Below are positions 991-58,115 of a stretch of 64,000 bases of DNA, in pieces. The position numbers were made by a program, and so were the translations under genes. A model generated the notes under the pieces. It was given only the letters and a program-made list of their open reading frames with translations. It ran no database searches and was not told the origin of the DNA. The stretch is from Asparagopsis taxiformis. Its lineage: Eukaryota > Rhodophyta > Florideophyceae > Bonnemaisoniales > Bonnemaisoniaceae. Every line of letters starts with the position of its first letter. Position 1 is the first letter of the stretch. The stretch is from NCBI GenBank assembly GCA_030407315.1, contig JALQPE010003128.1, positions 62,001 through 126,000 on the forward strand. Direction: 5' to 3'.

Positions 991-1067
991 AATTAGTGCA
1001 GTAAATGTGACGTTGACTAGAAGGTTTATCATGTAGTACATTATCAATAGAGTGCTGCGATTTAGAT

Positions 1068-37463: not shown

Positions 37464-39095
37464 TAGATGAGAATAAGATTAAAACATGAGAATGAAATTC
37501 TTAGTTGGAAATATTGGAATATTTTTATAGATTAAATGAGATTGCTGCACGGAAAAAATAATTCCATAGTGATTGAATGCCGCTTCCAGCCGTAGATGTA
37601 CATTCATATTCACTGCATTTGGAACAGATCAGGCAGTAGCGCAGCTGCTTGTTATTGCACCATAACACAATCTTCCTATGGGAACCAATCTCTAGTCAGT
37701 AGTCTAGTGCTCCCGCAATCTCATAACTGACTAGAGCCACGATCTGAATCTTTCAATTTGCTACCAGTCATTGTCTCAATGCATTTATTCTCACTTGTTT
37801 CCTTTACCACAACAGCATTCACACTTCATGATTATAAATAGAACCAAACCTGAGCTCATGAAACTTTGGTAAAGCATGAGCAGCATAGTCGATTATCACT
37901 GTACCGTGAGGGTCTCGTCGCAGACCCAAAATGATGCAGATGAAGACACAAATTAGACCACATGAAAACCTGTAGAACATGAACGTCATCATATGAGCAT
38001 GCATGCTTCGTAGATATAGACAAACAGGTATGACATCTCAGAAACAGCGCATGTCGCAACAAGGTTGCATACATCAGCATGGCATGGATAAGTATGGGCA
38101 TGATGGAGAAAATTTGCGCTGGAGCTGAAGCTAGAGGATCGTCCGAAGCGTGAAGAAGCGTCAAACTCTCCGCGAACCTGCAGTGTAGCTCTGATGCTTC
38201 CATATAATGATGCTAAAAAGGGCCTATTTTCAATGATAGTGTGTGAGGGAGCTGTTATATTTGGTCACCAAGCTGGTGGGTGAGTCGTGACTAACATCTT
38301 GTGCGATAAAGAGCACTTTCCAGTGCCTTCGTTGAGATTCAAGAGCGATGTTCAGCCGTATAGTTGGACACTGATGTGGCGAATGGAGTGAGGTCGGTAA
38401 TGGTGGAGCTCCGTAAATTATTTGTGCGGCATAGTGGCAGCCAGATCTGTACTTGTGGCTCCGAAAGAGGCGCAGGACGCACAAGAACTGCAGTGGAAAG
38501 GCTGGTTGTATAATATGGGCACGAAAACGAAGCAGTGACCCATATGCTGCCCAGCGGGCAGTAGGTGTGCTATTGTGGGGCTCATTTCGGAACGTTATCA
38601 AATTCCTCCTTGAGCAGCATGAGCAGTGTTGTAGAAGCAGTATAGCTAGCCACTGGTGTAGATGGATGTATCAAGCTCGTTCGAGCATGATGGATCAGAT
38701 GATATGACACCATAAGGTGGAGATGCTGCGTGGTGTGGTGGCAGCTAGAAAAGATTATGTCAGTATGGGAACGACGACGAAGCAGTATATCAAAAAATGC
38801 ATATTGTGTAACAAGCACATTGTATACAGCATGCTGATTTGGTGCACCACGCACGGATGATCGTTGTGGAATGAAGGTACATTGCGCTAGATAAAGAGTG
38901 AGGCGCACAATAAACACTGATTTCGCTATGAACAGAACGTACTTTCCAAACCAGAATCCAACTTTCTGAAGTTGATTGAACATGAGAGATGTTTTTTTCA
39001 TATTGATTGAATAGGATAACAAAGTTGATTGAACTACTCGTGTCTTCGAAGACGAGGCGTTTTCAATTCGGAATAGACGCCAGGCCTGACCTGAT
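37464..39095. other. Gene-poor interval
   Basis: AT-rich sequence in which no ORF looks like a protein. TTGATTGAA occurs three times between 38970 and 39035, near the 3' end of the transposase gene, and might belong to a terminal or subterminal region of that element. Otherwise I see nothing. Confidence 0.6.
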
Positions 39096-41576
39096 CTATT
39101 TCTCTACTCCAGCTGTTATCATCTTGTTTGTTAGTGAAGGGAACTCTGCAATGACGGTGTCAACCGAAATATGTCCCTTCCAGGCCACTGTTGTTCTCCC
39201 CTTGCGAAGCATGGCAGGCCTATACTTACCTGACCATGCGTCTCTTCCATCGTAGACCTCGTACCACCGAACACACAACTGACAAATAACCCCTTCGTTG
39301 TTTTTCTTACAACTCATAATTTGTCCTAGCCAGAACGGCATCTCAGTAGTACAGTCTTCTCCATTTACAGCCACGAAGCGATTCACCGAGTAGGGCAAGT
39401 CTGATAGTGGTATGCAATCTGCAGTCGACATGAGTTCCTCCTCCATCGGGACGACGTTCCGATTCCCTTTTCGATACATGCCATTCATCTCGAAACATTC
39501 GGTGAGGTTCCAATGAAAAGAATCTTCCCTTTCCTCATAAACCTGTCGTAGAAGCTCATGTAGCTGATCCATTTTAGAATTGTTATTGACCCTGCTCTCT
39601 TCCGAACGAAAACGGAGCAGGACCTCATGTCGATCTGGAGGAGAACGTATGATATTACTCGGTGTTCGTTTCAGTTCAGGAGGCTTAACCAGGAAACCAT
39701 TCAGCCCCGGAGTGAGAACTGGGAGAGGCTTCCAGTTGTCTTCACAAAATATCTTAACATCGCATGCAGTTCTGTAGAAGTCATAACTTTTTCCTGTATC
39801 TTGGGATCGGTGAAACCTGAAGTATCTGAATTTTGAGAAAGCATGCACTTTTCCAACCGAATTCTCACTCCGGCAGAGACCGGAGAAGTTTGCCACGTGC
39901 AACATACGAGAGACAGAGGGTTCCGGAGTATAGGACACTCTGAGTTGTTCAACTAAATCTTCCATAGTGACGGCGTTGTGGGAACGTAGCCTGCGAGAGG
40001 TACAGCTAAAGGCCTGGTCGATGTCTGCATGGGTGTGGCCGATGGGTAAGAAAGAAGCGTGTACTTCTTCAAACACACCCCAAGCAACGAGACATTCTAG
40101 ATAGCAAAACAGAAACGTGTTCTTGTTCTCTCTTGTGCAATTGTCTACCTGCAAGTACAGTGTTCCCTGAAGACTCGAACCCATAGCCTTTTTGGTAAGA
40201 GTCCTGTGAATTGCCTCGATGATATGATTTGCCCCAGTTTCGAATTCAGCAGTAAGTGTGTACAACGAAAGATGCTTTTGGACACCATGTTCGAGAACAC
40301 CTATGAGTCTCACCTTCAAACTATGACCAACAGTCGCTTTTGTACATACCGTGAAATGGGGAAGACCGTATCCTGATTGATCAGCCCCGTCTACGATCAG
40401 AGACGTGAACCTGGAGGGATATAGTGACGCTTCTTCACACTTCTTTTGATACTCCCTGCGTTCCCGTGCCACCATCTCGATATGACGCTGGCGACGTTCC
40501 AGAAGCGGAGCAGTGCGTTGAATATCTGTCCCGATGGCTTCCAGTTTATCACGTATGTACTCATATTCCGAACATTTCGTGAACCTCTGGACACGCCGAA
40601 CCTTGATATTCGCACAAAACGTGTTCCAGGTGTTGTAGAAGTAGCTCAAAGTTGGTGGGTTCCGGTTCGAGTATAATAACGTAAATTGGTCGCAGAACAT
40701 CTCGTACACAGCCTTCTTCTCGAAAAGAGGCAGATGCTTCTCTCCACTGTCTGGCATCATATCAGCAGTCGAGGCAGACAAGCGTTCAAGGAAGCAGATC
40801 ACTGCATCTCTATGTGGAGAGCCAGAAATTCGTTTCGGAGAAGCCATAAATGGAAGACTCCCATTCTGGCAAGCTTTCTTTACCGAGGTCTGCAGGTGTC
40901 GTGAAAACTTGAAGCTGAACTCTAGGAATTCGCAACACACAGGCTTCCCAGAGAAGTAGAACCGGTTACTGTTTGGTTCCAGTAGAGCGTGCAGATACCT
41001 GCGGCGATCGTCCCTGTTGTACAACAAAACTCGTTCTGCTTCATTCCGAAGGAAAACATGGTCGGTTTTTCTGAAGCATCCCTTATTGCAGCATGGTATT
41101 CTTCTTATATCTGTTTTGGGCAGTGACAAACTGAACTTCACCCGCCTCTCTAGCATGCTGCTCTTTCGACGAACTGAACTGGACCTCGTCACACTTTCAT
41201 AATTCTTCCTGTGTTGTAGTCGTGAAAATGGTTTATACATCGAAGCCGTGGATCGGAAAGAGTCGGAAGAAGTACCCACTATTCCATGCATCACTTCATC
41301 GTGGCTACGCGGCATAGATATGGTTTCAACAGAAGGAGCGTGTTCTGATTCGGAGTCCCTAGAAAGAGATTTCATGTATGATTCGGCTTTCTCCAGTGCG
41401 TCATTCCTAGCTTCGGCGAGATGAAAACGCGGAGCCATCTGCTGTGGGAGCAGAACGAATGATCTCTGAACGGTAGTTAGATTTGCAGGTAGCGTGGAAA
41501 AGAGATGGCTGCAAGACGAGTATATCGGTTGATCAAGATGCATGGTGAGTAGAAATGACACCGGTGAGACGTTCAT
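39096..41576 (-). CDS. DDE-type transposase (DUF7869-like), left arm
   Basis: An intact 826-codon ORF starting at an ATG (41574-41576). A zinc-binding motif CC-x3-C is at residues 162-167, followed by 'GKPVCCEFLEFSFKFSR', the N-terminal DNA-binding block of this family. The RNase H-like core has Asp in 'LIVDGADQ' (393-400), Asp in 'LQVDNCTRENKN' (475-486) and 'GHTHADIDQAF' (513-523), which are the family's signature acidic motifs. The C-terminal domain from about residue 735 ('PFWLGQI', 'VRWYEVYDGRD') recurs in the short gene of the same element. It is predicted to mobilise the element in the nucleus. It lies 259 bases downstream of the methyltransferase gene on the same strand. Calling it a transposase rests on the RNase H motifs and repeat context. 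Confidence 0.65.
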   Translation of the reverse strand: MNVSPVSFLLTMHLDQPIYSSCSHLFSTLPANLTTVQRSFVLLPQQMAPRFHLAEARNDALEKAESYMKSLSRDSESEHAPSVETISMPRSHDEVMHGIVGTSSDSFRSTASMYKPFSRLQHRKNYESVTRSSSVRRKSSMLERRVKFSLSLPKTDIRRIPCCNKGCFRKTDHVFLRNEAERVLLYNRDDRRRYLHALLEPNSNRFYFSGKPVCCEFLEFSFKFSRHLQTSVKKACQNGSLPFMASPKRISGSPHRDAVICFLERLSASTADMMPDSGEKHLPLFEKKAVYEMFCDQFTLLYSNRNPPTLSYFYNTWNTFCANIKVRRVQRFTKCSEYEYIRDKLEAIGTDIQRTAPLLERRQRHIEMVARERREYQKKCEEASLYPSRFTSLIVDGADQSGYGLPHFTVCTKATVGHSLKVRLIGVLEHGVQKHLSLYTLTAEFETGANHIIEAIHRTLTKKAMGSSLQGTLYLQVDNCTRENKNTFLFCYLECLVAWGVFEEVHASFLPIGHTHADIDQAFSCTSRRLRSHNAVTMEDLVEQLRVSYTPEPSVSRMLHVANFSGLCRSENSVGKVHAFSKFRYFRFHRSQDTGKSYDFYRTACDVKIFCEDNWKPLPVLTPGLNGFLVKPPELKRTPSNIIRSPPDRHEVLLRFRSEESRVNNNSKMDQLHELLRQVYEEREDSFHWNLTECFEMNGMYRKGNRNVVPMEEELMSTADCIPLSDLPYSVNRFVAVNGEDCTTEMPFWLGQIMSCKKNNEGVICQLCVRWYEVYDGRDAWSGKYRPAMLRKGRTTVAWKGHISVDTVIAEFPSLTNKMITAGVEK

Positions 41577-41835
41577 CTAATATGGATGCAGAGTGGCCTC
41601 CTCGACGGCGATAGTTGGCCCAGGATACAGCGCCAAATACCTATGTCAAATCAATCTCTGTTGTGAATGGAGTACGGCTGATTGGTTGATTTGTGCTCTT
41701 CATGCGCCCATGATTACGGGGAAAAATGACAACAATCTTTCCTCTCTGAAGGTTTACAAATGGTACGAAACAGAGCTAAAGGTTTATTGCAGTGGTTTTG
41801 TTCAAATCTGCCGAGCGAAACTATACGTAATAAGA

Positions 41836-43728
41836 CTAAGACAACGGCCTCATCTTGTTCAAGTCCCATGCGAATATCCCGTTCAGCCCTTTCAAAGTTC
41901 CAGGAGGAGGTTCAATACCACCGTATTTGTACGGGTAAGGACAATCCAAACAACATTCGTTCGGTTCGAACATATAACAAGATACAAGTTTCTGATCCTC
42001 ACCTTGAAAGTTCGCTAGAGGTACATTGTGTATTGTAGTTTGGAACCTCTCATCACTAGTTCCTGCACAAAGGAGAGACGCTTTTCCGACGACCTGATCC
42101 AAAATGTATAGTTCCACAGAATCTCCTCCTTTCAGTACTCTCTCTATTCCTTCGATAGTGGATTCACCGGCATTTGTATTATCATCTTTTCCCTTTTTCT
42201 GTAGCGAACAGATTTTCGGTTGGCTTAGCAGAACGCCATCCTCTGCATGATTCCCTGTTCTCCTCTTCTTCGATCCGATACGTGATCTCAGATCATTATG
42301 ATACAAAGCATCGGCAATAGAACGAAGTCTTTCATGAGCGAGACGGAAAATCTTGGTACTAGCTTCCACAACCACACATGAACGGGCTGTCTTCATCGCT
42401 GCGATCGCAGTAGTAAGTGTTCCTCCGTAAACATCAATAACTGAACCCCTCTCAGGACAAAACGTGTTGATTATCTCGGATAACATTCCAATATGTTTCT
42501 CTTCTGTTAGAACAGGAGATTTTGTTCCTGGAGTGAGAAGTTTGTCTTTCGAAACGGGAATTCTGGACATTGCAGCGAATTTCCGTTTCGTTTCTGTTGG
42601 GAAGAGGTGATATTGGCTTCGAAGGTCTGGCTTGAAACCGTCCTTACGATGTCCGGGAGCCCTGGCAACAACTGCAAACTCGCACGCGTTTTGTGGGAAC
42701 ATATCTCCGCGATGTGCTTGTACAGTGTTCGTGTCTTTCATGAATACGAAAGGGTATTCCGGACCGTCGAAACCGACCTTTCTCAGCTCATGCAGGAATG
42801 CTGGAAAGTTTCGGAATGATACAAAACAGAAAAACCAGCCACCTGGCTTCAAGGTTCTCCTTACAAACTGGCATAATGCATTGATTTCCTTATCACTTAT
42901 GAAATTGTTATATGCGGTATTACGAAGGGATTTAGAATTCGGAGTTCCATACGGAGGGTCGGTAAGAACTAAATCCTGAAGAGGGTACTCATCTGTCCAT
43001 ATTTCCTTGTCGAAGTCCTGCCATTTCATCTGATAGCATGTAATTCCCATTTCAAGAACGTAGTCTTTTCTTTCTGGCTCATTCGTACCAGATGAACCGC
43101 GTTTAGAATGAAGGTTGAGGCGGTCTGAGTTGATACTAGGTGAAGCAGAGACATCATTCTCTGTTATCATTCGGTCCACTGGAATAGCAGTTTTCGGTCC
43201 GGTGATAACCTTTTCGGAAGCGTCAACTTCATCTTGTACAGATTCTTGCGTTATCTGGCTCATCTTCGGTGCCGAGACTATATCCTCATCACATATTTCG
43301 GAGCCTAGTTGAGGAACACTATCTTCCTTCGAGACATCTTTTTGTTTCTCTTCTTTCGCGTCCCTTGTATCTGCATTTTCGTTATCGGCTCCCGTCTTGC
43401 CAATTTCCTGACAGAAAGAATCGGGATCTGGGTCTTTTCGATGGCTTTCCCGATACTTCTTTTCCTTCATGGGAGCAATTTGAGGGCAAACTTTCCGGTA
43501 CTGCTTCAAAAGAGCATCCAGAATATTATAATCATTTCCCATGTTCTCCATAACATCAGTATCGAACTTTGATGAGCGAAGTAGATTCTGCTTGATTGAT
43601 TCCATGCCCTTTGGCCATACCTGTCCTTCATGAAGAACCTCGAACTTACGCGCTTCTTTCATCGCTGCGCATGTGTATTCGTATTGCTGGAGGGTATCTT
43701 TGTATGATACTGGTTTGAATTTATTCAA
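41836..43728 (-). CDS. Beta-class amino DNA methyltransferase, left arm
   Basis: A 630-codon ORF. 'LVLTDPPYGTPNS' (DPPY at residues 257-260) is the catalytic motif IV of N6-adenine or N4-cytosine methyltransferases. 'IDVYGGTLTTAIAA' (431-444) is the SAM-binding motif I in the place of the usual D-P-F-x-G-x-G-T-T. Motif IV before motif I is the beta-class order. Residues 90-220 are a charged disordered insert. The nominal start is a TTG overlapping the TGA of the ParB ORF; the first ATG is at residue 23. Prokaryotic and phage proteins often fuse a ParB-like domain to just this methyltransferase type, so the two ORFs probably act as one unit. Whether the base is adenine or cytosine cannot be told. 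The copy at 53025 is also intact. Confidence 0.8.
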   Translation of the reverse strand: MNKFKPVSYKDTLQQYEYTCAAMKEARKFEVLHEGQVWPKGMESIKQNLLRSSKFDTDVMENMGNDYNILDALLKQYRKVCPQIAPMKEKKYRESHRKDPDPDSFCQEIGKTGADNENADTRDAKEEKQKDVSKEDSVPQLGSEICDEDIVSAPKMSQITQESVQDEVDASEKVITGPKTAIPVDRMITENDVSASPSINSDRLNLHSKRGSSGTNEPERKDYVLEMGITCYQMKWQDFDKEIWTDEYPLQDLVLTDPPYGTPNSKSLRNTAYNNFISDKEINALCQFVRRTLKPGGWFFCFVSFRNFPAFLHELRKVGFDGPEYPFVFMKDTNTVQAHRGDMFPQNACEFAVVARAPGHRKDGFKPDLRSQYHLFPTETKRKFAAMSRIPVSKDKLLTPGTKSPVLTEEKHIGMLSEIINTFCPERGSVIDVYGGTLTTAIAAMKTARSCVVVEASTKIFRLAHERLRSIADALYHNDLRSRIGSKKRRTGNHAEDGVLLSQPKICSLQKKGKDDNTNAGESTIEGIERVLKGGDSVELYILDQVVGKASLLCAGTSDERFQTTIHNVPLANFQGEDQKLVSCYMFEPNECCLDCPYPYKYGGIEPPPGTLKGLNGIFAWDLNKMRPLS

Positions 43729-44870
43729 TCTGGAGATTCCCCGAAGCCTGTGTAAAGAGTATGAACTTGAACTTCTTCAGCATCAGTACCCGAAGCATTC
43801 ATGAACTTGGTTGCAGATTTCAAAGATGTTAAATTCACAAATTTGCGATACACGCGACAATCAACGCTTGTCATTGGGGTATTAGTACCCTTTCGCCGAG
43901 TTTTCAATGCCATACTGTTGCTAGAAGGAGGTTCTGCCAAGTCTGGATGCTCCGAATTCATAATTGTTCCAATCTCTTCGATCACTCGCACAGGAAGGCG
44001 CAATGCCGTCGCAGCAGTCTGTCTCACGGTGTTATCCTTGAGGTGGGAGCAACCATCATATGCGGCAGCAACTTGTTTGGCTGTAGGTGGCTTTGAGGTC
44101 ATGCTCTGCATCCGGTGGGCTTCTTCTTTCATTCCGCTCAGGATATCATAGAACGTGGTTTCGACATATAATGTTGCATCATGCTTACGGTTCTGATGTC
44201 TGCCTAGTTGTTTCAGAACTTGGATAGAATGACCTCCTTTCAGTATCGTGACAGGCCACATAAAAGAGTCCCACCTCTCCGGGTTCTCATCCATTAACTC
44301 CTGGATTGCAGTCAGTCTGTGCATACCGTCAACAACTCCGTACCAAACGGAACGGCATTCGGACTTCTCTTTCGACTCACTGTCAGAAAGAAAATCACCC
44401 TGAGGACCGCGTATCGTTTTGAAAAAGTCAATAATGTGGCGCTGGAACGACCCGGTCAACTCGACTACGATCGCATTGTCGGAGCCCGAAATGAATCCAT
44501 CAATTCCGTTTTTTTCATCTTGTTCTTGACATTGTGCTGACTTCATGTTTCCAGAAAATATCGACTTCAATCGCAACACACCAGAGCGCACTACTTGTCG
44601 AACAGCAGTGAGTGGGATGCATGCCCGCGGATCAACACGTGTGTTCGTAGACCCTTCCATGACGTCTGCAAATAAGGCGGTATTAGTGTGCTTCATGGTG
44701 GAAGTACCCGGTTCCTCTTCTGGAGGACCTGATTTGGAACTGAGTCTGGACCCACTCCTCTTGAAGAATCTCGTCATGTCATCCAGTTCTGAAATAATGA
44801 AGTGCCGGGTAAGAAATGAAGGGGAAACAGAAGCTATAAAACTCTGTATCAATTTCTCGCACTTTCGCAT
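43725..44870 (-). CDS. ParB/sulfiredoxin-fold protein, left arm
   Basis: An intact 381-codon ORF from an ATG. The signature 'VVDGMHRLTAIQEL' (residues 179-192) is the D-G-x-H-R-x-x-A motif of the ParB/Srx fold that binds NTP or metal. It is followed by an all-helical part ('KQVAAAYDG...NTVRQTAATAL', about 265-300) that could be a helix-turn-helix. In prokaryotes this domain precedes methyltransferases and may guide them to DNA or act as a nuclease. The TGA overlaps the methyltransferase frame by four bases. A 104-bp palindrome lies 51 bases upstream. The right-arm copy is frameshifted, so this is the only intact one. Confidence 0.75.
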   Translation of the reverse strand: MRKCEKLIQSFIASVSPSFLTRHFIISELDDMTRFFKRSGSRLSSKSGPPEEEPGTSTMKHTNTALFADVMEGSTNTRVDPRACIPLTAVRQVVRSGVLRLKSIFSGNMKSAQCQEQDEKNGIDGFISGSDNAIVVELTGSFQRHIIDFFKTIRGPQGDFLSDSESKEKSECRSVWYGVVDGMHRLTAIQELMDENPERWDSFMWPVTILKGGHSIQVLKQLGRHQNRKHDATLYVETTFYDILSGMKEEAHRMQSMTSKPPTAKQVAAAYDGCSHLKDNTVRQTAATALRLPVRVIEEIGTIMNSEHPDLAEPPSSNSMALKTRRKGTNTPMTSVDCRVYRKFVNLTSLKSATKFMNASGTDAEEVQVHTLYTGFGESPD

Positions 44871-44920
44871 GAAGGACTTGAAATGATTGTCATGAACGCC
44901 ATACTCAAGTACAGTGTACT

Positions 44921-45024
44921 TTCACCATGCATAGTACACTGGCCCAGACCCGAAATGACCGTTCACATTGGATCCAATGTGAACGGTCATTTCGGTTTTG
45001 GGCCAGTGTACTATGCATGGTGAA
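44921..45024. repeat. 104-bp palindrome upstream of the ParB gene, left arm
   Basis: Two 52-base arms are centred on GGATCC (44970-44975), with two mismatched pairs. It ends 51 bases before the ParB start and could serve as an operator, a ParB-binding site or an origin-like element. Its copy in the right arm is at 51730-51833. Confidence 0.9.
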
Positions 45025-45029
45025 GCATC

Positions 45030-45945
45030 TTGGCCATGCAGGACACGACACGGCTCAAACCGGATTACGACGGCGGTGGGGGCCCGAGTATCGTGGTTAC
45101 CATTGCTTGGAAGACAATTGAAGTGGATAGGAGACGCAAGCACTCTCCCAATGATTACCAGTCAGAAATATCAGTAGCGGGGTATTCTAAAAATTATATT
45201 GCGCCGGGCCGTGTCTATCCAGATGATGGAATGATTTGGCAATCTGATTTGCTATATTGCTCACAACACTTGGCATATTTTTTTTCATATTTCCCAGGAA
45301 TGGCCCATCTCACCAGGACTATTTCCTATACAGCAAATGGGCCGTACACATCATCTTTTCGCTGCTAATAGCAGGAATGTCTGAACAGGTTTCGCCACCT
45401 TCCCCTCCGATACCAATATTACCGAACAAGTCTGAGTATCTTGCACACCGAAAAACCCATTCTCATTTCCCCATTGCAATGCCATTTTTCAGTAAACAGC
45501 GCAGCTACCAGGTTTCTTTCATCCCTTAATACATTCCATATCCTACATTACACCTTAGAGTACATTCCTACCCACTGCAACTTAGACGATAAACAATGCA
45601 TATTAGAAATAGAAACTCAGACCGAAAGAACATTATTATTGCCTGAACGGTGCACAAAGCAGGCCTGCCGAAAAGTAGTACGTTGTACTGTTCTCAAACT
45701 ACAGAAGCTTGATTCGATTTTTGTACAACTAAATTGGTGTTTACAAGGTTCAGGTGCAATAGCATGCAACTTGATACATATAAATGGTAGAACATTTACA
45801 TTATGACTCCATTCAATGAACGGAATATTGTTCTACGAACATGTGGAATAATAACGGGAGCAGATAATGAATCGTTCCCACCAAGAGTATTCGGATTAGA
45901 GATCAGACAGATAACATGTCTTTCCACAGTCATTGCTGGTTGAAC
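45030..45945 (+). other. Coding-like interval between the divergent genes, left arm
   Basis: Several plus-strand frames read like protein: 45030-45368 ('SIVVTIAWKTIEVDRRR'), 45441-45806 ('CNLDDKQCILEIETQTERT') and a short frame from 45802 ('NIVLRTCGIITGAD'). None shows a known domain. They may be exons of one gene or a decayed ORF of the element. The right arm carries the same sequence with a one-base indel (ORFs 51387-51827 and 50950-51498). Because the arms are nearly identical this is not independent evidence. Confidence 0.3.
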
Positions 45946-46187
45946 TACGACTGGCACGCTGGAATCCTTCAATTCAAGAGAGTTCCGGGCGTCCAATGAG
46001 ATCGATGGATTCAAGGCTCATAATTCAAGAATGCATCTCGTTCCGAAAAGTACAGAAAGCGCTCATTTGTGACATATTTACATCCTGAACGTTTATAACT
46101 GATTAGAAGCTGGTTCCCGTTCTGGTATAAAGCAGGACATGTGCTGCAAGTCCCCGACACTTTCGCCCCATACCACCTCCATCAACA

Positions 46188-46748
46188 ATGACCGAATCAT
46201 TAGGATCTAAAATAGACCGACTGTCTTTCGCGATGAAAGGACAGGTGTCCTCTATCAGGAAGAGAAATCTGAACAGGGCAAAAATCATAGCGAAAAAGTT
46301 CGAAGATGGAGAATTGCACAAGGTACAATGCTGTTCCCGGCGCTGCTTCGAAATTGCTGCCAGCGAAGATCTAGTAAGGGACTCATTTCGAGTCGTTGAG
46401 TATGATCGTACGAGACGACAGCGCTACTTAGTATCGTTATATGAGCCGGTGTCGGAAATGTACGCATATCGCGGGAGTGCCGTCTGCTATCAATTCTTAA
46501 CGCAGGTATTCGGCTTCTCCCGCGAGATGCAGTGGTCAAACAAAAAACCACTGAAAAAAGCTGCGCAACTGGCGATCGAGAAAAAAAGGGGGGAGAGTGT
46601 GAACGTTGTGAGCGCTGTATGCGACTCCGCTCTCCATCTCCTCACCATCGAGTACGCTTGCCGGCAGACAAAGCGCATCAATCCGCGCCGAAAAATTCGC
46701 ACATTGACACGTTCAGTGCACAGAAATATGATATGGACAAACATCTAG
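46188..46748 (+). pseudogene. Core-less transposase-related protein, broken left copy
   Basis: The first 130 codons match the intact copy at 50568-49486, including the CC-x3-C motif and 'GSAVCYQFLTQVFGFSR'. A one-base loss in an A run near 46582 (seven A here, eight in the right copy) shifts the frame, and the inverted repeat ends at 46790, so the C-terminal domain is missing. It is divergently oriented to the ParB gene. Confidence 0.8.
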
Positions 46749-46901
46749 CGACGCAAACACAGCCGCAATCTCCTACGGACAAAAATGAAGCGCAATCGTC
46801 ATCACAGACTATGTGTCGGATTTCCATGTCTTGGTCTGCAGTGTAGCTATCAGTGTCTCGTTTTCGACCAACCTCCTCGGGCAATCTGAGCAGCGATCTG
46901 C

Positions 46902-47760
46902 TCAATTCTTCCTGATGATGTTGTGAAAGGTTGGCATCGCTTCCAACGTTATGTTTGTATGATATAGCCACACATAGTGTCCCCTCTTAGCCATGTTGTA
47001 TCGGCAGCCTAATCCTTTTATTCCATCACTGGTTCGATCAACGTCTTCGTCAGAATCAGTAAGACTGCTATCGTCGTCACGATTCGTGGCATTAGATGAA
47101 CCATCATTATCATTCAATTGCAGGCGTTTCGCAACTCGCTCAGTGCGGCGGGGGGATGATGCAATTTTCGCAGAGCGGCAGGTAGTAACCGGGGGAGAAG
47201 TTTCAGCGTTCTTGCGGATTGAGCTGCGGACGGCTTCCTTCTGTTTATCCAAGGAATTGCGCTTACTGCTTGTATCTGAAATGAGTTTTTCAGTGGAAAC
47301 TTGTTCAGAATCATCCTCGTCTAGGCTAGCCTGTGCATCATTGTCAAAGACTGTTGGTGAAAGTGCTTCACTCGTATACACACTAGAATCACCAGAAGGA
47401 GAATGGCCCTGTTCCAAGATAAAATCATCCCCCCAATCGTCTGTTTCTGCAGCAGGATCTGCATACACACCAATGACATTACTCACAAGAGGAAGATCTG
47501 ATGCACCTAATTTGGCGTGCTGGTCCAACTCTTCGTCAAATGCAGTGAGAGTAATTGTATCGCGTGGACCGTGATCCCTAACACTGTTTGACGAGGTTGC
47601 TTTCTGCGGTGGTGATATGCGACCGTGAAGACGACTAATAGATCCGCTTCGGCTAGCGGCAGTTCCCTTCGCTGGAAACTTGGTTGGTGCGATTTCAGAG
47701 TCATCAGACAGTTCATCCTAGCCCCAATCGTCCACAGAGTCATCTGTTGTAATTGATGTA
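46902..47760 (-). pseudogene. Acidic Ser-rich hypothetical protein, decayed
   Basis: The clean ORF is 47528-46902 (208 codons from a nominal start), but the same frame reads on upstream to about 47760 through one TAG near 47717. The product is Asp/Ser/Glu-rich with a repeated acidic motif ('VDDWG' upstream and 'TDDWGDDF' downstream), and a Lys/Arg-rich patch in between ('SPRRTERVAKRL'). No family is recognised. It could be an exon of a gene whose other exons lie in 47760-48520. Confidence 0.35.
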
Positions 47761-49102
47761 CGTGTTGGAATGCGCGAAGAAAGAGCTGGTGTGGGGTAGA
47801 AGTGTCTGGCGGATGAGTAGAAGGTGGAGGAATAGTTGGGCTCGCACTTGAAGCATTACGAAGACGCAAGGGCTGGCAAGGAGTGGGGAGAGGATCGGGT
47901 GAGCGAATGCGAGGACTGTCATTGAGATTAAGTGTGTCTGTCGACAATACTTGAGCAGATAATAGTGGTGGTCGAGGCGGAAGGGCAGGAGTGGCTGTTG
48001 CAGAGGTGCGACGGGTGGTGGCCTGAGCAACAACACGAACATCGGAAGAAGTTGACTCCTGAGAACTGCGCTCGGAAAAATTTCACGGAAGCTGGCGATG
48101 TGTTTTAGCTGTGTGCACTGGAGGAAATGACGAAGATGAGGGCACCGTTGGCGAATTATGCGCTTCCGAGAGGCGAATTCGAGCGCCACCTTCTTTGGTT
48201 ACGACATCTGAAGTATGGGACGTATGGCGAAAGCGCTTCGAAGTAGGCTTGGGTGGAGGTTGCACTTTTCGCAATGGTTTCTGTGAGTGATATGAACGCT
48301 TTTCTCGTGACTCTGGTTGATCAGACAAAGGCTGAGGAAAGCCATGCGAATGGGCGGTAGAATTTGTTGGTGTTAGTTGTGGTCGTTGCTGGTGATGCCA
48401 TTCCAAAAAAATTCGCCAGAACAATTGTTTCCGCTTGAGTAGAATTGATTTCGCCCAAGTTGGCGACGGAAACTTGCGGTGAACAGGCGGGGAAGAATGC
48501 AAGGAAGACGCAGAGAGCACTTACGACGCGCGAAAAGCTGAGAAATGTGTGACTATCACTCATGGAAGACGTTGAGGGCGGAAGGGAACACATTGCAGAG
48601 GGAGGATGTGCGAGGCGGAAGGGAGAGGGAATAATTTCATGGCCTTGATGGGTCATGCATGCACGGCTTACAGAAAATGTGCATCTGGCAGTTAAATGGC
48701 CGGCGTGCTTCCAGTAGAAAGCCGCCGGCCGCGGGTACACATTTGATCACATGTCACAATTCAAAATTGTGACTCAAAATTTTGTACCGGCCTGTTGTGC
48801 TCAAATTTCAAGCACACCCCTCCGTGACATGTTGTACCTCCCGCCAATAAGTGGCAGTGTTTCGGTTGCATACTTTGAGCATAATGTGCACATTGTGCAC
48901 AATGATTGTGTACATGTGTGTACTCGAGACGCCATGGCGTGGATGTCTTGGCGGTGCTCATTGTAGTTCACGCTCAACAGTGCGTGCATGCCGACGCGGA
49001 CATCAGCACACGACGGAGCATGTGATACGTCTATGCATGGACTGCATCACACACTCAACGTGCAAATAGGATCTTATAGCAGTCCATGCCTGGAGCATAT
49101 GA

Positions 49103-49295
49103 CTGTAAAGGGGTATAGGAGTGTGGAGCATGTATGACACGGGTGGTTGTACACATAAGTGTGTGGCGTTCGAGAATCAATAAGTGAAGCAGTGTATGGT
49201 CGTCGGCACTTTGCAATACGGCTTGTATGATTGTACAGGGGTATAGGAGCGTGGAGCATGCATAGCATGGATGGATTTACACATATGTTTGCATG
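49103..49295. repeat. Two degenerate direct repeats
   Basis: A block of about 65 bases containing GGGGTATAGGAG and GTGGAGCATG recurs 127 bases downstream (49103 and 49230). No function is apparent. Confidence 0.6.
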
Positions 49296-49485
49296 AGTCT
49301 GTGGAGTGCATGGATGGCACGGAAGGGTGTACAAATAAGTGTGCATGTCTGTGTGGCGGCAGTGAAGCAATCAGTGCAACAGTGCATGCACGTCACAGCA
49401 CTTTGCAATATGAATTATTATGAATGAGTGAGTGGCATTAAAGAGATTCTGAACGACATACATTTATGTGAACGGTCTTACCAAC

Positions 49486-50568
49486 TTATTTAAACGATGG
49501 CAACTGCTCTCGTACTCGATCACAGGTTGCACCATCTAACTTTCCGTCCACTAGCGAGTCAAACGTTGTAATCACCGAAGTAAGCGCAATTGTGTCAATC
49601 CAGGGTGTAGGAGTGCCGAGCACAAAGCACGGTTTGTACCTACTCCGGTAGGAGTCAGCGTCCGTTTTGGTGTACCAATGAACCATCAATTTTGCGATAC
49701 GGTTTCCCTTGCGCGTAATTCTATGTGTTCTCGCCACCCAGAACGGCTCCTCATCCGTACACTGATCCCCTTTGACCACCAGAAACAACTTCTTTCCCGA
49801 TTGTGTAGCACTCAGAAGACTCGGCGGCGCCGTTTCTTCGTGAATCGAAAGCGTCTCCGAATTTTCGGACTGTTGCACGATGGGCTTTTCAGTAGCTTTG
49901 GAGCGTTGAAACTGCTGCTCAGCACGCGATACTTCATTTTTGTCCGTAGGCTCAGCACGCGACACTTCATTTTTGTCCGTAGGAGATTGGGGCTGTGTTT
50001 GCGTCGCTAGATGTTTGTCCATATCATATTTCTGTGCACTGAACGTGTCAATGTGCGAATTTTTCGGCGCGGATTGATGCGCTTTGTCTGCCGGCAAGCG
50101 TACTCGATGGTGAGGAGATGGAGAGCGGAGTCGCATACAGCGCTCACAACGTTCACACTCTCCCCCCTTTTTTTTCTCGATCGCCAGTTGCGCAGCTTTT
50201 TTCAGTGGTTTTTTGTTTGACCACTGCATCTCGCGGGAGAAGCCGAATACCTGCGTTAAGAATTGATAGCAGACGGCACTCCCGCGATATGCGTACATTT
50301 CCGACACCGGCTCATATAACGATACTAAGTAGCGCTGTCGTCTCGTACGATCATACTCAACGACTCGAAATGAGTCCCTTACTAGATCTTCGCTGGCAGC
50401 AATTTCGAAGCAGCGCCGGGAACAGCATTGTACCTTGTGCAATTCTCCATCTTCGAACTTTTTCGCTATGATTTTTGCCCTGTTCAGATTTCTCTTCCTG
50501 ATAGAGGACACCTGTCCTTTCATCGCGAAAGACAGTCGGTCTATTTTAGATCCTGATGATTCGGTCAT
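49486..50568 (-). CDS. Core-less transposase-related protein (possible repressor)
   Basis: An intact 360-codon ORF from an ATG. Residues 40-130 resemble the N-terminal zinc block of the transposase: CC-x3-C at 48-53, then 'GSAVCYQFLTQVFGFSR' against 'GKPVCCEFLEFSFKFSR'. The last 110 residues resemble the transposase C-terminus: 'EEPFWVARTHRI' and 'VHWYTKTDADSY' against 'EMPFWLGQIMSC' and 'VRWYEVYDGRDA'. The whole RNase H-like catalytic core between them is missing, replaced by a charged linker with a short tandem repeat ('PTDKNEVSRAE' twice). Such a protein could bind the element ends without cutting. Truncated transposases act as repressors in P elements, which is the analogy I use. The two proteins are only distantly similar, so this is an old, maintained paralogue and not a fresh deletion. 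Confidence 0.65.
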   Translation of the reverse strand: MTESSGSKIDRLSFAMKGQVSSIRKRNLNRAKIIAKKFEDGELHKVQCCSRRCFEIAASEDLVRDSFRVVEYDRTRRQRYLVSLYEPVSEMYAYRGSAVCYQFLTQVFGFSREMQWSNKKPLKKAAQLAIEKKKGGECERCERCMRLRSPSPHHRVRLPADKAHQSAPKNSHIDTFSAQKYDMDKHLATQTQPQSPTDKNEVSRAEPTDKNEVSRAEQQFQRSKATEKPIVQQSENSETLSIHEETAPPSLLSATQSGKKLFLVVKGDQCTDEEPFWVARTHRITRKGNRIAKLMVHWYTKTDADSYRSRYKPCFVLGTPTPWIDTIALTSVITTFDSLVDGKLDGATCDRVREQLPSFK

Positions 50569-51729
50569 TGTTGATGGAGGTGGTATGGGGCGAAAGTGTC
50601 GGGGACTTGCAGCACATGTCCTGCTTTATACCAGAACGGGAACCAGCTTCTAATCAGTTATAAACGTTCAGGATGTAAATATGTCACAAATGAGCGCTTT
50701 CTGTACTTTTCGGAACGAGATGCATTCTTGAATTATGAGCCTTGAATCCATCGATCTCATTGGACGCCCGGAACTCTCTTGAATTGAAGGATTCCAGCGT
50801 GCCAGTCGTAGTTCAACCAGCAATGACTGTGGAAAGACATGTTATCTGTCTGATCTCTAATCCGAATACTCTTGGTGGGAACGATTCATTATCTGCTCCC
50901 GTTATTATTCCACATGTTCGTAGAACAATATTCCGTTCATTGAATGGAGTCATAATGTAAATGTTCTACCATTTATATGTATCAAGTTGCATGCTATTGC
51001 ACCTGAACCTTGTAAACACCAATTTAGTTGTACAAAAATCGAATCAAGCTTCTGTAGTTTGAGAACAGTACAACGTACTACTTTTCGGCAGGCCTGCTTT
51101 GTGCACCGTTCAGGCAATAATAATGTTCTTTCGGTCTGAGTTTCTATTTCTAATATGCATTGTTTATCGTCTAAGTTGCAGTGGGTAGGAATGTACTCTA
51201 AGGTGTAATGTAGGATATGGAATGTATTAAGGGATGAAAGAAACCTGGTAGCTGCGCTGTTTACTGAAAAATGGCATTGCAATGGGGAAATGAGAATGGG
51301 TTTTTCGGTGTGCAAGATACTCAGACTGTTCGGTAATATTGGTATCGGAGGGGAAGGTGGCGAAACCTGTTCAGACATTCCTGCTATTAGCAGCGAAAAG
51401 ATGATGTGTACGGCCCATTTGCTGTATAGGAAATAGTCCTGGTGAGATGGGCCATTCCTGGGAAATATGAAAAAAAATATGCCAAGTGTTGTGAGCAATA
51501 TAGCAAATCAGATTGCCAAATCATTCCATCATCTGGATAGACACGGCCCGGCGCAATATAATTTTTAGAATACCCCGCTACTGATATTTCTGACTGGTAA
51601 TCATTGGGAGAGTGCTTGCGTCTCCTATCCACTTCAATTGTCTTCCAAGCAATGGTAACCACGATACTCGGGCCCCACCGCCGTCGTAATCCGGTTTGAG
51701 CCGTGTCGTGTCCTGCATGGCCAAGATGC

Positions 51730-51833
51730 TTCACCATGCATAGTACACTGGCCCAAAACCGAAATGACCGTTCACATTGGATCCAATGTGAACGGTCATT
51801 TCGGGTCTGGGCCAGTGTACTATGCATGGTGAA
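51730..51833. repeat. 104-bp palindrome upstream of the ParB gene, right arm
   Basis: Copy of 44921-45024, centred on GGATCC, with the same two mismatches on the opposite arm. It ends about 50 bases before the ParB start at 51884. Confidence 0.9.
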
Positions 51834-51883
51834 AGTACACTGTACTTGAGTATGGCGTTCATGACAATCATTTCAAGTCCTTC

Positions 51884-53028
51884 ATGCGAAAGTGCGAGAA
51901 ATTGATACAGAGTTTTATAGCTTCTGTTTCCCCTTCATTTCTTACCCGGCACTTCATTATTTCAGAACTGGATGACATGACGAGATTCTTCAAGAGGAGT
52001 GGGTCCAGACTCAGTTCCAAATCAGGTCCTCCAGAAGAGGAACCGGGTACTTCCACCATGAAGCACACTAATACCGCCTTATTTGCAGACGTCATGGAAG
52101 GGTCTACGAACACACGTGTTGATCCGCGGGCATGCATCCCACTCACTGCTGTTCGACAAGTAGTGCGCTCTGGTGTGTTGCGATTGAAGTCGATATTTTC
52201 TGGAAACATGAAGTCAGCACAATGTCAAGAACAAGATGAAAAAACGGAATTGATGGATTCATTTCGGGCTCCGACAATGCGATCGTAGTCGAGTTGACCG
52301 GGTCGTTCCAGCGCCACATTATTGACTTTTTCAAAACGATACGCGGTCCTCAGGGTGATTTTCTTTCTGACAGTGAGGCGAAAGAGAAGTCCGAATGCCG
52401 TTCCGTTTGGTACGGAGTTGTTGACGGTATGCACAGACTGACTGCAATCCAGGAGTTAATGGATGAGAACCCGGAGAGGTGGGACTCTTTTATGTGGCCT
52501 GTCACGATACTGAAAGGAGGTCATTCTATCCAAGTTCTGAAACAACTAGGCAGACATCAGAACCGTAAGCATGATGCAACATTATATGTCGAAACCACGT
52601 TCTATGATATCCTGAGCGGAATGAAAGAAGAAGCCCACCGGATGCAGAGCATGACCTCAAAGCCACCTACAGCCAAACAAGTTGCTGCCGCATATGATGG
52701 TTGCTCCCACCTCAAGGATAACACCGTGAGACAGACTGCTGCGACGGCATTGCGCCTTCCTGTGCGAGTGATCGAAGAGATTGGAACAATTATGAATTCG
52801 GAGCATCCAGACTTGGCAGAACCTCCTTCTAGCAACAGTATGGCATTGAAAACTCGGAGAAAGGGTACTAATACCCCAATGACAAGCGTTGACTGTCGCG
52901 TGTATCGCAAATTTGTGAATTTAACATCTTTGAAATCTGCAACCAAGTTCATGAATGCTTCGGGTACTGATGCTGAAGAAGTTCAAGTTCATACTCTTTA
53001 CACAGGCTTCGGGGAATCTCCAGATTGA
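51884..53028 (+). pseudogene. ParB/sulfiredoxin-fold gene, frameshifted right copy
   Basis: Identical to the left copy apart from a few changes, but a run of seven A is reduced to six near 52240, so the frame ends at 52288. The second frame (52294-53028) retains the D-G-x-H-R motif. Its stop overlaps the methyltransferase frame exactly as on the left. Without frameshift rescue this copy cannot make the full protein. Confidence 0.85.
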
Positions 53029-54917
53029 ATAAATTCAAACCAGTATCATACAAAGATACCCTCCAGCAATACGAATACACATGCGCAGCGATGAAAGAAG
53101 CGCGTAAGTTCGAGGTTCTTCATGAAGGACAGGTATGGCCAAAGGGCATGGAATCAATCAAGCAGAATCTACTTCGCTCATCAAAGTTCGATACTGATGT
53201 TATGGAGAACATGGGAAATGATTATAATATTCTGGATGCTCTTTTGAAGCAGTACCGGAAAGTTTGCCCTCAAATTGCTCCCATGAAGGAAAAGAAGTAT
53301 CGGGAAAGCCATCGAAAAGACCCAGATCCCGATTCTTTCTGTCAGGAAATTGGCAAGACGGGAGCCGATAACGAAAATGCAGATACAAGGGACGCGAAAG
53401 AAGAGAAACAAAAAGATGTCTCGAAGGAAGATAGTGTTCCTCAACTAGGCTCCGAAATATGTGATGAGGATATAGTCTCGGTACCGAAGATGAGCCAGAT
53501 AACGCAAGAATCTGTACAAGATGAAGTTGACGCTTCCGAAAAGGTTATCACCGGACCGAAAACTTCTATTCCAGTGGACCGAATGATAACAGAGAACGAT
53601 GTCTCTGCTTCACCTAGTATCAACTCAGACCGCCTCAACCTTCATTCTAAACGCGGTTCATCTGGTACGAATGAGCCAGAAAGAAAAGACTACGTTCTTG
53701 AAATGGGAATTACATGCTATCAGATGAAATGGCAGGACTTCGACAAGGAAATATGGACAGATGAGTACCCTCTTCAGGATTTAGTTCTTACCGACCCTCC
53801 GTATGGAACTCCGAATTCTAAATCCCTTCGTAATACCGCATATAACAATTTCATAAGTGATAAGGAAATCAATGCATTATGCCAGTTTGTAAGGAGAACC
53901 TTGAAGCCAGGTGGCTGGTTTTTCTGTTTTGTATCATTCCGAAACTTTCCAGCATTCCTGCATGAGCTGAGAAAGGTCGGTTTCGACGGTCCGGAATACC
54001 CTTTCGTATTCATGAAAGACACGAACACTGTACAAGCACATCGCGGAGATATGTTCCCACAAAACGCGTGCGAGTTTGCAGTTGTTGCCAGGGCTCCCGG
54101 ACATCGTAAGGACGGTTTCAAGCCAGACCTTCGAAGCCAATATCACCTCGTCCCAACAGAAACGAAACGGAAATTCGCTGCAATGTCCAGAATTCCCGTT
54201 TCGAAAGACAAACTTCTCACTCCAGGAACAAAATCTCCTGTTCTAACAGAAGAGAAACATATTGGAATGTTATCCGAGATAATCAACACGTTTTGTCCTG
54301 AGAGGGGTTCAGTTATTGATGTTTACGGAGGAACACTTACTACTGCGATCGCAGCGATGAAGACAGCCCGTTCATGTGTGGTTGTGGAAGCTAGTACCAA
54401 GATTTTCCGTCTCGCTCATGAAAGACTTCGTTCTATTGCCGATGCTTTGTATCATAATGATCTGAGATCACGTATCGGATCGAAGAAGAGGAGAACAGGG
54501 AATCATGCAGAGGATGGCGTTCTGCTAAGCCAACCGAAAATCTGTTCGCTACAGAAAAAGGGAAAAGATGATAATACAAATGCCGGTGAATCCACTATCG
54601 AAGGAATAGAGAGAGTACTGAAAGGAGGAGATTCTGTTGAACTATACATTTTGGATCAGGTCGTCGGAAAAGCGTCTCTCCTTTGTGCAGGAACTAGTGA
54701 TGAGAGGTTCCAAACTACAATACACAATGTACCTCTAGCGAACTTTCAAGGTGAGGATCAGAAACTTGTATCTTGTTATATGTTCGAACCGAACGAATGT
54801 TGTTTGGATTGTCCTTACCCGTACAAATACGGTGGTATTGAACCTCCTCCTGGAACTTTGAAAGGGCTGAACGGGATATTCGCATGGGACTTGAACAAGA
54901 TGAGGCCGTTGTCTTAG
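53025..54917 (+). CDS. Beta-class amino DNA methyltransferase, right arm
   Basis: A 630-codon intact copy of the gene at 41836-43728. It differs at a few residues (for example Ser for Ala after 'GPKT', Val for Phe before 'PTETK', Val for Ala in 'SxPKMSQ') but keeps DPPY and 'IDVYGGTLTT'. Both methyltransferase copies are open while neighbours decay, which may reflect selection or simply youth. Confidence 0.8.
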   Translation: MNKFKPVSYKDTLQQYEYTCAAMKEARKFEVLHEGQVWPKGMESIKQNLLRSSKFDTDVMENMGNDYNILDALLKQYRKVCPQIAPMKEKKYRESHRKDPDPDSFCQEIGKTGADNENADTRDAKEEKQKDVSKEDSVPQLGSEICDEDIVSVPKMSQITQESVQDEVDASEKVITGPKTSIPVDRMITENDVSASPSINSDRLNLHSKRGSSGTNEPERKDYVLEMGITCYQMKWQDFDKEIWTDEYPLQDLVLTDPPYGTPNSKSLRNTAYNNFISDKEINALCQFVRRTLKPGGWFFCFVSFRNFPAFLHELRKVGFDGPEYPFVFMKDTNTVQAHRGDMFPQNACEFAVVARAPGHRKDGFKPDLRSQYHLVPTETKRKFAAMSRIPVSKDKLLTPGTKSPVLTEEKHIGMLSEIINTFCPERGSVIDVYGGTLTTAIAAMKTARSCVVVEASTKIFRLAHERLRSIADALYHNDLRSRIGSKKRRTGNHAEDGVLLSQPKICSLQKKGKDDNTNAGESTIEGIERVLKGGDSVELYILDQVVGKASLLCAGTSDERFQTTIHNVPLANFQGEDQKLVSCYMFEPNECCLDCPYPYKYGGIEPPPGTLKGLNGIFAWDLNKMRPLS

Positions 54918-55176
54918 TCTTATTACGTATAGTTTCACTCGGCAGATTTGAACAAAACCACTGCAATAAACCTTTAGCTCTGTTTCGTACCATTTGTAAA
55001 CCTTCAGAGAGGAAAGATTGTTGTCATTTTTCCCCGTAATCATGGGCGCATGAAGAGCACAAATCAACCAATCAGCCGTACTCCATTCACAACAGAGATT
55101 GATTTGACATAGGTATTTGGCGCTGTATCCTGGGCCAACTATCGCCGTCGAGGAGGCCACTCTGCATCCATATTAG

Positions 55177-57363: not shown

Positions 57364-58115
57364 ACTACGGTGTTGAAAAGGGGGCCTCAGACAGTACTGC
57401 GAGACAGTGATTTTTACTGTCTGAGACAGTAAAAATCACTATGCGGCAAATGAAAATTAATGCCACACTTGGAGACAGTGATTTGCACTGTCTGGCAGAC
57501 AGTACGGAACACTGTCTGCAGACAGTAAAAAACACTGTCTCACAGTACTGTCTGAGGCAGTGAATGGAGACAGTAAAAATTAATGATTTATTCAATAGTT
57601 GGATATGATGTAATTTACTGTACTGGGCAGTGTTGGCGGATAGTGTTTTGTATTGGCCAAGGCAACATGGCCGGATAGTGAAATACGCTGCCTGGGACAA
57701 TAGATGGAACCAACACGGTGCACTGTCCTGGGCAGTACCTGGAGACAGTGATTTTCACTGTCCTGGGCAGTACCTGGAGACAGTGATTTTCACTGTCCTG
57801 GGCAGTACCTGGAGACAGTGATTTTCACTGTCCTGGGCAGTACCTGGAGACAGTGATTTTCACTGTCCTGGGCAGTACCTGTAGACAGTACTTTGTGCTG
57901 CCCTGGGCAGTACCTGTAGACAGTATTTCGTGCTGCCCTGGGCAGCACCTGTAGACAGTACTTTGTGCTGCCCTGGGCAGCACCTGTAGACAGTACTTTG
58001 TGCTGCCCTGGGCAGCACCTGGAGATAGTACTTTGTGCTGTCCTGGGCAGCACCTGGAGACAGTATTTCGTGCTGCCCTGGGTAGCACCTGGAGACAGTA
58101 AAAGTAGTGTCCTGA
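57363..58115 (+). mobile_element. CACTA-type element terminus with subterminal repeats
   Basis: It starts CACTACGGTGTTGAAAAGG, preceded by CTA, and the same terminus occurs at 63875. CACTA as the first bases is the hallmark of that superfamily. A 35-bp perfect-arm palindrome (57406-57440) and many ACAGT/ACTGT motifs follow, then eleven 35-bp tandem copies (57727-58111; core CCTGGGCAGTACCTGGAGAC), as is typical of CACTA subterminal regions that bind the transposase. The opposite terminus was not found downstream, so it is truncated or extends beyond recognition. Confidence 0.7.

What the first reader, a model, noticed from the sequence alone, without database searches (positions are those of the whole stretch)
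39096..50568. A eukaryotic DNA transposon carrying its own ParB-methyltransferase module
Transposase, beta-class amino DNA methyltransferase (DPPY) and ParB/Srx-fold gene lie in tandem on one strand, with a divergent core-less transposase relative. The pairing of a ParB domain with this methyltransferase type is known from prokaryotes and phages; finding it coupled to a eukaryotic DDE transposase suggests an element that methylates DNA, perhaps to mark its ends, time transposition or escape silencing. The four genes recur together in both arms, but the arms are one recent duplication, so independent copies are needed.
Basis: partly seen in the sequence, partly recalled or inferred. Interest (0 to 1): 0.9.

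Follow-up and report, generated by a model that had tools for sequence, protein, structure and literature searches.

The report
Jumping gene with DNA-methylating partner
This eukaryotic genome carries many copies of a large jumping DNA element whose predicted cutting enzyme is inherited together with a fused bacterial-type DNA methyltransferase, which is predicted to write a chemical mark on the element's own DNA and likely helps it escape silencing by its host.

Summary
The window holds two truncated, head-to-head copies of a terminal-inverted-repeat DNA transposon. The complete copy measured (C544) is 13,632 bp; typical ends are AACACTG...CAGTGTT, target duplications are 4 bp (3 of 3 copies examined), and two uninterrupted copies of C544's insertion site exist, one in this window. 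The transposase is a DUF7869 protein. ParB-like and methyltransferase parts are normally one fused gene, split in the window copy. The trees of the two proteins nearly match (distance correlation 0.96, 15 pairs), and in the one pair where it could be estimated both domains are under purifying selection. The PF01555 domain is secure; the ParB fold rests on a DGxHR motif (10 of 13) and sub-threshold hits. Three of 15 pairs form a clade that has lost DPPY. Function is inferred: it probably marks its own DNA (6mA or 4mC) to stay expressible.

The parts
38913..46790 (-). left copy of the transposon, 3' end intact, 5' side truncated (element positions 13632 to 5776 of copy C544)
   Evidence: 99.0% identical to the C544 element over 7,878 bp
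47381..57363 (+). right copy, inverted; truncated at both ends (element positions 3331 to 13157 of C544; similarity to another subfamily copy, C2332, begins at about 46847)
38913..38975 (-). 3' terminal inverted repeat, ending ...GCGAAATCAGTGTT on the - strand
   Evidence: 39 of 39 other copies scored (of 1,335 candidates) end here within 12 bases; inverted match at the 5' ends of C384 and C2332, 86% and 80%
38972..39033 (-). three subterminal repeats TTCAATCAA (38972-38980, 39003-39011, 39025-39033)
   Evidence: three at near-same spacing also in C544, C2332 and the 65%-identical family L044
39096..41576 (-). DUF7869 transposase (predicted), 826 aa, motifs VDGADQ, QVDNCxRENKN, GHTHxDIDQ
   Evidence: PF25273 E 1.5e-49; the three acidic motifs kept in 15 of 15 proteins
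41836..43728 (-). methyltransferase half of the fused gene, DPPY motif (split off here by a frameshift)
   Evidence: PF01555 E 4.5e-12; one ORF with ParB in 56 of 108 hits
43725..44870 (-). ParB-like half of the fused gene, motif WYGVVDGMHR
46188..46748 (+). core-less transposase relative, left copy, truncated; divergent from the ParB-methyltransferase gene
49486..50568 (-). core-less transposase relative, right copy, 360 aa open frame; divergent from the ParB-methyltransferase gene
   Evidence: similar to transposase residues 156-240 and 734-824 only
51884..53028 (+). ParB-like half, right copy, interrupted near 52290
   Evidence: ORFs 51884-52288 and 52294-53028
53025..54917 (+). methyltransferase half, right copy
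55177..57369 (+). transposase, right copy, match ends at residue 731
   Evidence: C2995:117177-119369
1387..1506 (-). uninterrupted (empty) copy of the site into which the complete copy C544 is inserted; lies in a Plavaka transposase gene
   Evidence: 120 of 120 bases identical to the joined C544 flanks with one TAGG; Plavaka PF18759 E 1.7e-24

Best explanation
It is a terminal-inverted-repeat DNA transposon that encodes a predicted DUF7869 transposase and one fused ParB-like and amino-methyltransferase protein, and this protein is predicted to methylate the element's own DNA (likely 6mA) and so likely keeps its copies expressible against host silencing. Shown: inverted-repeat ends, 4-bp target duplications and an empty site; near-identical copies on many contigs; the fused gene; its co-inheritance with the transposase; purifying selection on both domains in one comparison. 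Inferred: the transposase cuts and pastes the element through its three conserved acidic motifs; the ParB-like domain binds or nicks DNA and brings the methyltransferase to the element, perhaps at the TCAATCA repeats that cluster at the ends; the mark opposes silencing or keeps the ends accessible; the core-less relative regulates the transposase.
For: Ends: 39 of 39 other copies scored (1,335 candidates) stop within 12 bases of one 3' base; 37 of 38 (404 candidates; self and the identical C98 set aside) start within 5 bases of one 5' base. Duplications TTTG and GGTT and TAGG, with two empty sites 120/120 identical. Close copies: 46 of 55 transposase hits (1,109 candidates) have ParB within 8 kb, each on the same strand. 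Diverged: 6 of 7 loci; chance about 2e-5 even if all 2,605 PF01555 candidates were real. Elsewhere: 6 of 11 relatives share contig length and source with one of 120 listed transposase relatives (138 found); 0 of 20,000 jittered trials reached 6. Co-inheritance: Mantel r 0.956 over 15 pairs, r 0.982 over the 9 own-genome pairs. Selection: dN/dS 0.067 ParB, 0.061 methyltransferase, 0.14 transposase, one comparison. DPPY in 12 of 15. TTCAATCA[AT] occurs 4 times in 13,632 bp, all within 119 bases of an end, 0.47 expected. Two other PF01555 families here carry a SET domain.
Against: No methylation data exist here. Three of 15 paired proteins (one clade) have EPPD, EPPE or EPPA for DPPY, and the two of these with a readable ParB motif also lost its Arg: catalysis seems dispensable there. 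The ParB fold has no significant hit. L060, 1 of 7 diverged loci, shows no partner in the 4.1 kb read upstream. Nine of 55 transposase hits have no ParB hit listed within 8 kb (lists capped). Only 10 of the 150 scored PF01555 hits lie within 10 kb of a scored DUF7869 hit, about 3 expected, and 7 of these 10 are one family: most strong methyltransferase hits are elsewhere. The methyltransferase alignment mildly rejects the transposase topology (AU p 0.029; SH p 0.51). dS is 1.6-1.9 for the one usable comparison and saturated in the other 5 of 6. TCAATCA also occurs twice inside C544. CpG evidence is mixed: pooled, CpG transitions between copies are no commoner than others (0.0095 against 0.0094), but C-T at CpG is higher (0.0128 against 0.0079) and G-A lower (0.0060 against 0.0107).
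Confidence: 0.5

Rival explanations
1. Licensing: the methyltransferase marks the transposon ends so that the transposase acts only on methylated or half-methylated ends, tying transposition to replication, as Dam does for some bacterial elements (recalled).
For: TCAATCA repeats cluster in inverted order at the ends, and the 3' cluster is kept in a 65%-identical family; the transposase and methyltransferase trees nearly match.
Against: Nothing shows which protein binds the repeats; subterminal repeats are common transposase sites (general knowledge); a clade lacks DPPY.
Confidence: 0.25
2. Modification and nicking pair: the ParB-like domain nicks unmethylated DNA and the methyltransferase protects the element, a restriction-modification-like unit that favours the element or biases repair at empty sites.
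For: PMC5512222 (passages) reports non-specific nicking by the ParB domain of Bacillus cereus ParB-methylase Bce_0392; weak hits to GmrSD_N and DndB; the ParB-like and methyltransferase motifs are both degenerate in mgD and mgE.
Against: ParB fold unproven; a free nickase would endanger a nucleus with many copies (inference).
Confidence: 0.13
3. The fused protein is mainly a DNA-binding partner of the transposase (target choice or complex assembly), and catalysis is incidental.
For: One clade keeps the protein without DPPY.
Against: DPPY is kept in 12 of 15; methyltransferase-domain dN/dS is 0.06 in the one usable comparison.
Confidence: 0.09
4. Passenger cargo picked up by chance, or an assembly artefact.
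For: The window arms form a large inverted pair.
Against: Matching trees for pairs at 22-76% methyltransferase identity, purifying selection, arms that differ at 12 sites, complete copies on other contigs with target duplications.
Confidence: 0.03

Closest known systems
[quoted passage not shown]
   Same: TIR DNA transposons that carry an enzyme acting on DNA methylation beside the transposase
   Different: The enzyme modifies 5mC; the transposases belong to other groups; here a prokaryote-type amino-methyltransferase is predicted to add a mark
DIRS retrotransposons with Dam-like adenine methyltransferases, and dinoflagellate and charophyte retrotransposons with DNMTs (PMC5890265, passages)
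   Same: Eukaryotic mobile elements that encode DNA methyltransferases
   Different: Retrotransposons; the word ParB does not occur in the main text of that paper
Virus-resident Mariner elements with transposase, endonuclease and methyltransferase (PMC3627910, passages)
   Same: DNA transposon with a methyltransferase gene
   Different: In viruses, Mariner transposase, TA duplications, different methyltransferase types
ParB-methylase of Bacillus cereus, Bce_0392, and phage polyvalent proteins (PMC5512222, passages)
   Same: ParB-like domain fused to an adenine methyltransferase
   Different: Prokaryotic; not described as paired with a DDE transposase in the passages read; the only phage-collection hit to our protein covers 22% at 25% identity
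Bdelloid N4CMT (PMC8885841, passages)
   Same: Eukaryotic gene with the PF01555 domain
   Different: Host gene with a chromodomain that acts on transposons; the paper says it has no eukaryotic homologs
Sola2 transposons (PMC3627910, passages)
   Same: 4-bp target duplications
   Different: AT-rich duplications there; the three here are TTTG, GGTT, TAGG; no Sola2 transposase sequence was available for comparison

Membership tests
Class II TIR (cut-and-paste type) DNA transposon | inverted terminal repeats | tested here: met
   63-bp ends match inverted at 86% and 80% in two copies
Class II TIR (cut-and-paste type) DNA transposon | target-site duplication of fixed length and an empty site | tested here: met
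   4 bp in 3 of 3 copies examined; two empty sites for C544
Class II TIR (cut-and-paste type) DNA transposon | transposase with RNase H fold and DDE/D triad | tested here: inconclusive
CACTA/EnSpm | CAC...GTG termini and 3-bp duplication (PMC12730594, passages) | tested here: not met
   termini AACACTG, duplication 4 bp; transposase matches only DUF7869 in Pfam
Zisupton | 8-bp target duplication (PMC12730594, passages) | tested here: not met
   4 bp
Plavaka | Plavaka transposase domain | tested here: not met
   only DUF7869 found; a true Plavaka gene lies elsewhere in the window
Sola2 | 4-bp target duplication | tested here: met
Sola2 | Sola2-type transposase sequence | not testable with these tools
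   no Repbase sequence held
Beta-class amino DNA methyltransferase (PF01555) | PF01555 domain with DPPY before the cofactor motif | tested here: met
   13 of 13 members of A1 match PF01555; DPPY stands before the cofactor motif; DPPY in 10 of 13 and in 12 of 15 paired proteins
ParB/sulfiredoxin superfamily | significant profile or fold match | tested here: inconclusive
   GmrSD_N 6 of 11 (best E 0.006) and DndB 3 of 11, PHROG ParB-like 3 of 11, all weak; DGxHR in 11 of 11 of A3 but in 10 of 13 of A1; no credible PDB match

The most novel reading that the evidence does not exclude
DUF7869 elements are an unrecognised superfamily of eukaryotic DNA transposons whose minimal unit is a transposase plus a captured prokaryotic ParB-methyltransferase: a self-epigenome system that writes 6mA on its own terminal repeats, which has spread through this genome, and whose methyltransferase kin, fused to a SET domain, also sit in other elements such as beside Plavaka, so that mobile DNA here has its own combined DNA and histone code.
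Probability: 0.35. Interest if true: 0.92.

Novelty: new variant of a known kind. Interest (0 to 1): 0.82.

Why it matters
Transposons that carry DNA-modifying enzymes are known. Here the modifier is an old, co-inherited partner of the transposase across pairs that share as little as 22% (methyltransferase) and 38% (transposase) identity. That makes an open question, what eukaryotic mobile elements gain from DNA methyltransferases and whether 6mA can be a selfish anti-silencing mark, directly testable by long-read sequencing of one organism. It also gives a likely function to a Pfam family of unknown function for which one search found no paper.

Tried and rejected
Rejected: assembly fold-back (arms differ; complete copies elsewhere); a 5' end at C544 position 28001, first taken from where blocks began, replaced by the true end at 25752. 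Relatives in other collections: none confirmed for the transposase in viral contigs or prokaryote genome contigs, none for the fused protein in viral contigs (it was not scanned in genome contigs), one weak phage hit. Structure prediction was never available.

Ten paper searches showed no DUF7869 or ParB-methyltransferase transposon in the titles and abstracts listed; only the top rows of large lists were seen, and six papers were read in passages. The library lacks most subscription papers and Repbase, so earlier reports, for example from the Aravind group (recalled), may exist.
Full report
What is in the window. The window is part of an unnamed 141-Mb assembly; it holds LTR retrotransposon genes and a Plavaka transposase, so I take it as eukaryotic. 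The ORF at 39096-41576 matches DUF7869 (E 1.5e-49) and the ORF at 41836-43728 matches the amino-methyltransferase family PF01555 (E 4.5e-12). The ORF at 43725-44870 has the ParB-like motif WYGVVDGMHR. The core-less relative at 49486-50568 resembles only the two ends of the transposase. The two arms (38913-46790 and 47381-57363) are inverted, truncated copies, 99.78% alike over 7,402 aligned bases.

One fused gene. Of 108 ParB hits listed in the own genome (670 candidates), 56 lie in an open frame of at least 900 aa that runs on into the methyltransferase (read directly in L011, L029, C544, L043 and L044). The window copy differs by two bases in length at the join and is split.

The element. 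A DNA search with the 3' end scored 39 other copies (1,335 candidates); all 39 stop within 12 bases of ...CAGTGTT. The inverted match at the other end was found in C384 and C2332 (86% and 80% over about 63 bases), and 37 of 38 other copies scored (404 candidates; C98, identical into the flank, set aside) start within 5 bases of it, the last 18 bases outside it. Direct 4-bp duplications flank the three copies examined: TTTG, GGTT and TAGG. C544 (25752-39383, 13,632 bp; its 5' end reads AATACTG) has its empty site twice, in this window and in L053, 120 of 120 bases identical. So this is a real transposon that has inserted into a sequence of which intact copies survive. Order in C544: core-less gene divergent (in two overlapping frames), then ParB-methyltransferase and transposase in tandem.

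Co-occurrence. Close copies: 46 of 55 listed transposase hits (1,109 candidates) have a ParB hit within 8 kb, each on the same strand; nine have none listed, but both lists are capped. Diverged copies: from groups that I picked by eye I asked for the upstream side of ten DUF7869 loci; five were granted, two of the other five later in shortened form, three never. Six of the seven hold a ParB-methyltransferase (L054 to L059), one in tandem (L055) and five back to back; L060 holds none in the 4.1 kb read. A further back-to-back family (C609, C974, C2255, C2616, C2011, C2012, C2038) shows constant spacing of about 4.3 kb between hits. Two loci fetched through the ParB list (L043, L044; 78% and 65% ParB identity) also have the transposase in tandem. 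Against this, only 10 of the 150 scored PF01555 hits (2,605 candidates) lie within 10 kb of the 150 scored DUF7869 hits (502 candidates), with about 3 expected. The largest group of PF01555 hits, to which L051 belongs, is another kind of element.

Outside the genome. None of 20,000 jittered trials reached six. These contigs were not read, so the pairing there is inferred; five of 11 showed no such partner. A seventh possible pair (12693 bases; P0140 and P0014) was not used. DUF7869 rang in 0 of 14 named control genomes.

Co-inheritance and selection. For 15 pairs the distance matrices correlate at r 0.956 (p 5e-5), and 9 of 12 tree splits are shared. Nine pairs are from this genome (r 0.982): eight from one locus each, the ninth joins C544's fused protein with the window's near-identical transposase; L054 enters with its methyltransferase frame only. 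The six inferred pairs alone give r 0.78, p 0.011. The transposase data accept the methyltransferase tree (AU p 0.10); the methyltransferase data mildly reject the transposase tree (AU p 0.029, SH p 0.51), by 17 log units against about 1,770-1,890 for three random relabellings. Against L043, dN/dS is 0.11 for the C544 fused gene (ParB 0.067, methyltransferase 0.061, linker 0.30, C-terminus 0.22) and 0.14 for the window's transposase; dS is 1.6-1.9 there and saturated in the other 5 of 6 comparisons, so these values are rough.

Domain evidence. PF01555 matches 13 of 13 aligned members; the profile matches solved methyltransferases such as DpnA (E 7e-13), MT-A70 (4e-6) and CcrM (8e-4). DPPY is present in 12 of 15 paired proteins; the other three (EPPD, EPPE, EPPA) form one clade, and the two with a readable ParB motif have also lost its Arg. 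DPPY occurs in 6mA and in some 4mC enzymes (general knowledge), so the base is not decided. The ParB part has only sub-threshold matches to ParB/Srx-type families. The three acidic motifs of the transposase are invariant in 15 of 15, but the fold is not shown.

Ends. TTCAATCA[AT] occurs four times in the C544 element, all within 119 bases of an end (one at the 5' end, three at the 3' end, inverted to each other; 0.47 expected) and not in 3.9 kb of flank. The shorter TCAATCA occurs 3 times at the 5' ends of C384 and C2332 and twice at that of C544; 3 times at the 3' ends of C544, C2332, the window and L044, and once in the 82 bases read of C384's 3' end. It also occurs twice inside C544. These are candidate binding or methylation sites; which protein uses them is unknown.

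Mechanism. The conserved pair, the selection on the methyltransferase and the terminal repeats fit a protein that marks its own element. Precedents for mobile elements that meddle with epigenetic marks (PMC12730594, PMC5890265; passages), and the SET domains fused to sister methyltransferases in this genome (L051, L053), make an anti-silencing mark my first choice at about 0.5, ahead of licensing of the ends, a nicking and protection pair, or a structural role. Decay by 5mC is not clear: pooled CpG transitions between copies equal others (0.0095 against 0.0094), but C-T at CpG is raised (0.0128 against 0.0079) while G-A is lowered (0.0060 against 0.0107), over non-independent pairs of copies.

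Known or new. Mobile elements with DNA methyltransferases are known, and ParB-methylase fusions are known from prokaryotes. The listings of ten paper searches showed no DUF7869 transposon with a ParB-methyltransferase. I call it a new variant of a known kind.

Noticed in passing
L051 (C92:49001-58000) and L053 (C2876:35001-44000): Other PF01555 families carry a C-terminal SET domain (E 4e-6 and 1e-6): a 1186-aa methyltransferase-SET protein with a ParB-like stretch by eye, whose E-value is shared by 78 rows, and a 1080-aa methyltransferase-SET protein.
   Followed up: partly
window 1-4178 and L061 (C2995:57001-62000): A Plavaka transposase gene lies at the start of the window; just before it, on the same contig, is a stretch 98.6% identical to residues 12-453 of the L053 methyltransferase-SET protein, and L053 shows the same neighbours with that gene in the other orientation.
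   Followed up: partly
own genome: 2,605 first-look candidates for PF01555 in 141 Mb (150 scored, all 150 over the cut-off), which I judge extreme for a eukaryote.
   Followed up: partly
L051:6530-8701: Neighbouring 724-aa open frame with a second ParB-like motif by eye (VDGSHRVTAL) and no Pfam match.
   Followed up: no
L052 (C1591:30501-35824) and L006: ParB-methyltransferase families with Cys-rich C-terminal tails that by eye could bind zinc.
   Followed up: no
L044:7354-7998: The 65%-identical family copy in C606 is followed at its 3' end by a reading frame that looks helicase-like by eye, perhaps its insertion target.
   Followed up: no
window 57639-58128 and 62516-63107: 35-bp tandem repeats and a 117-nt repeat cluster with an inverted pair.
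   Followed up: no
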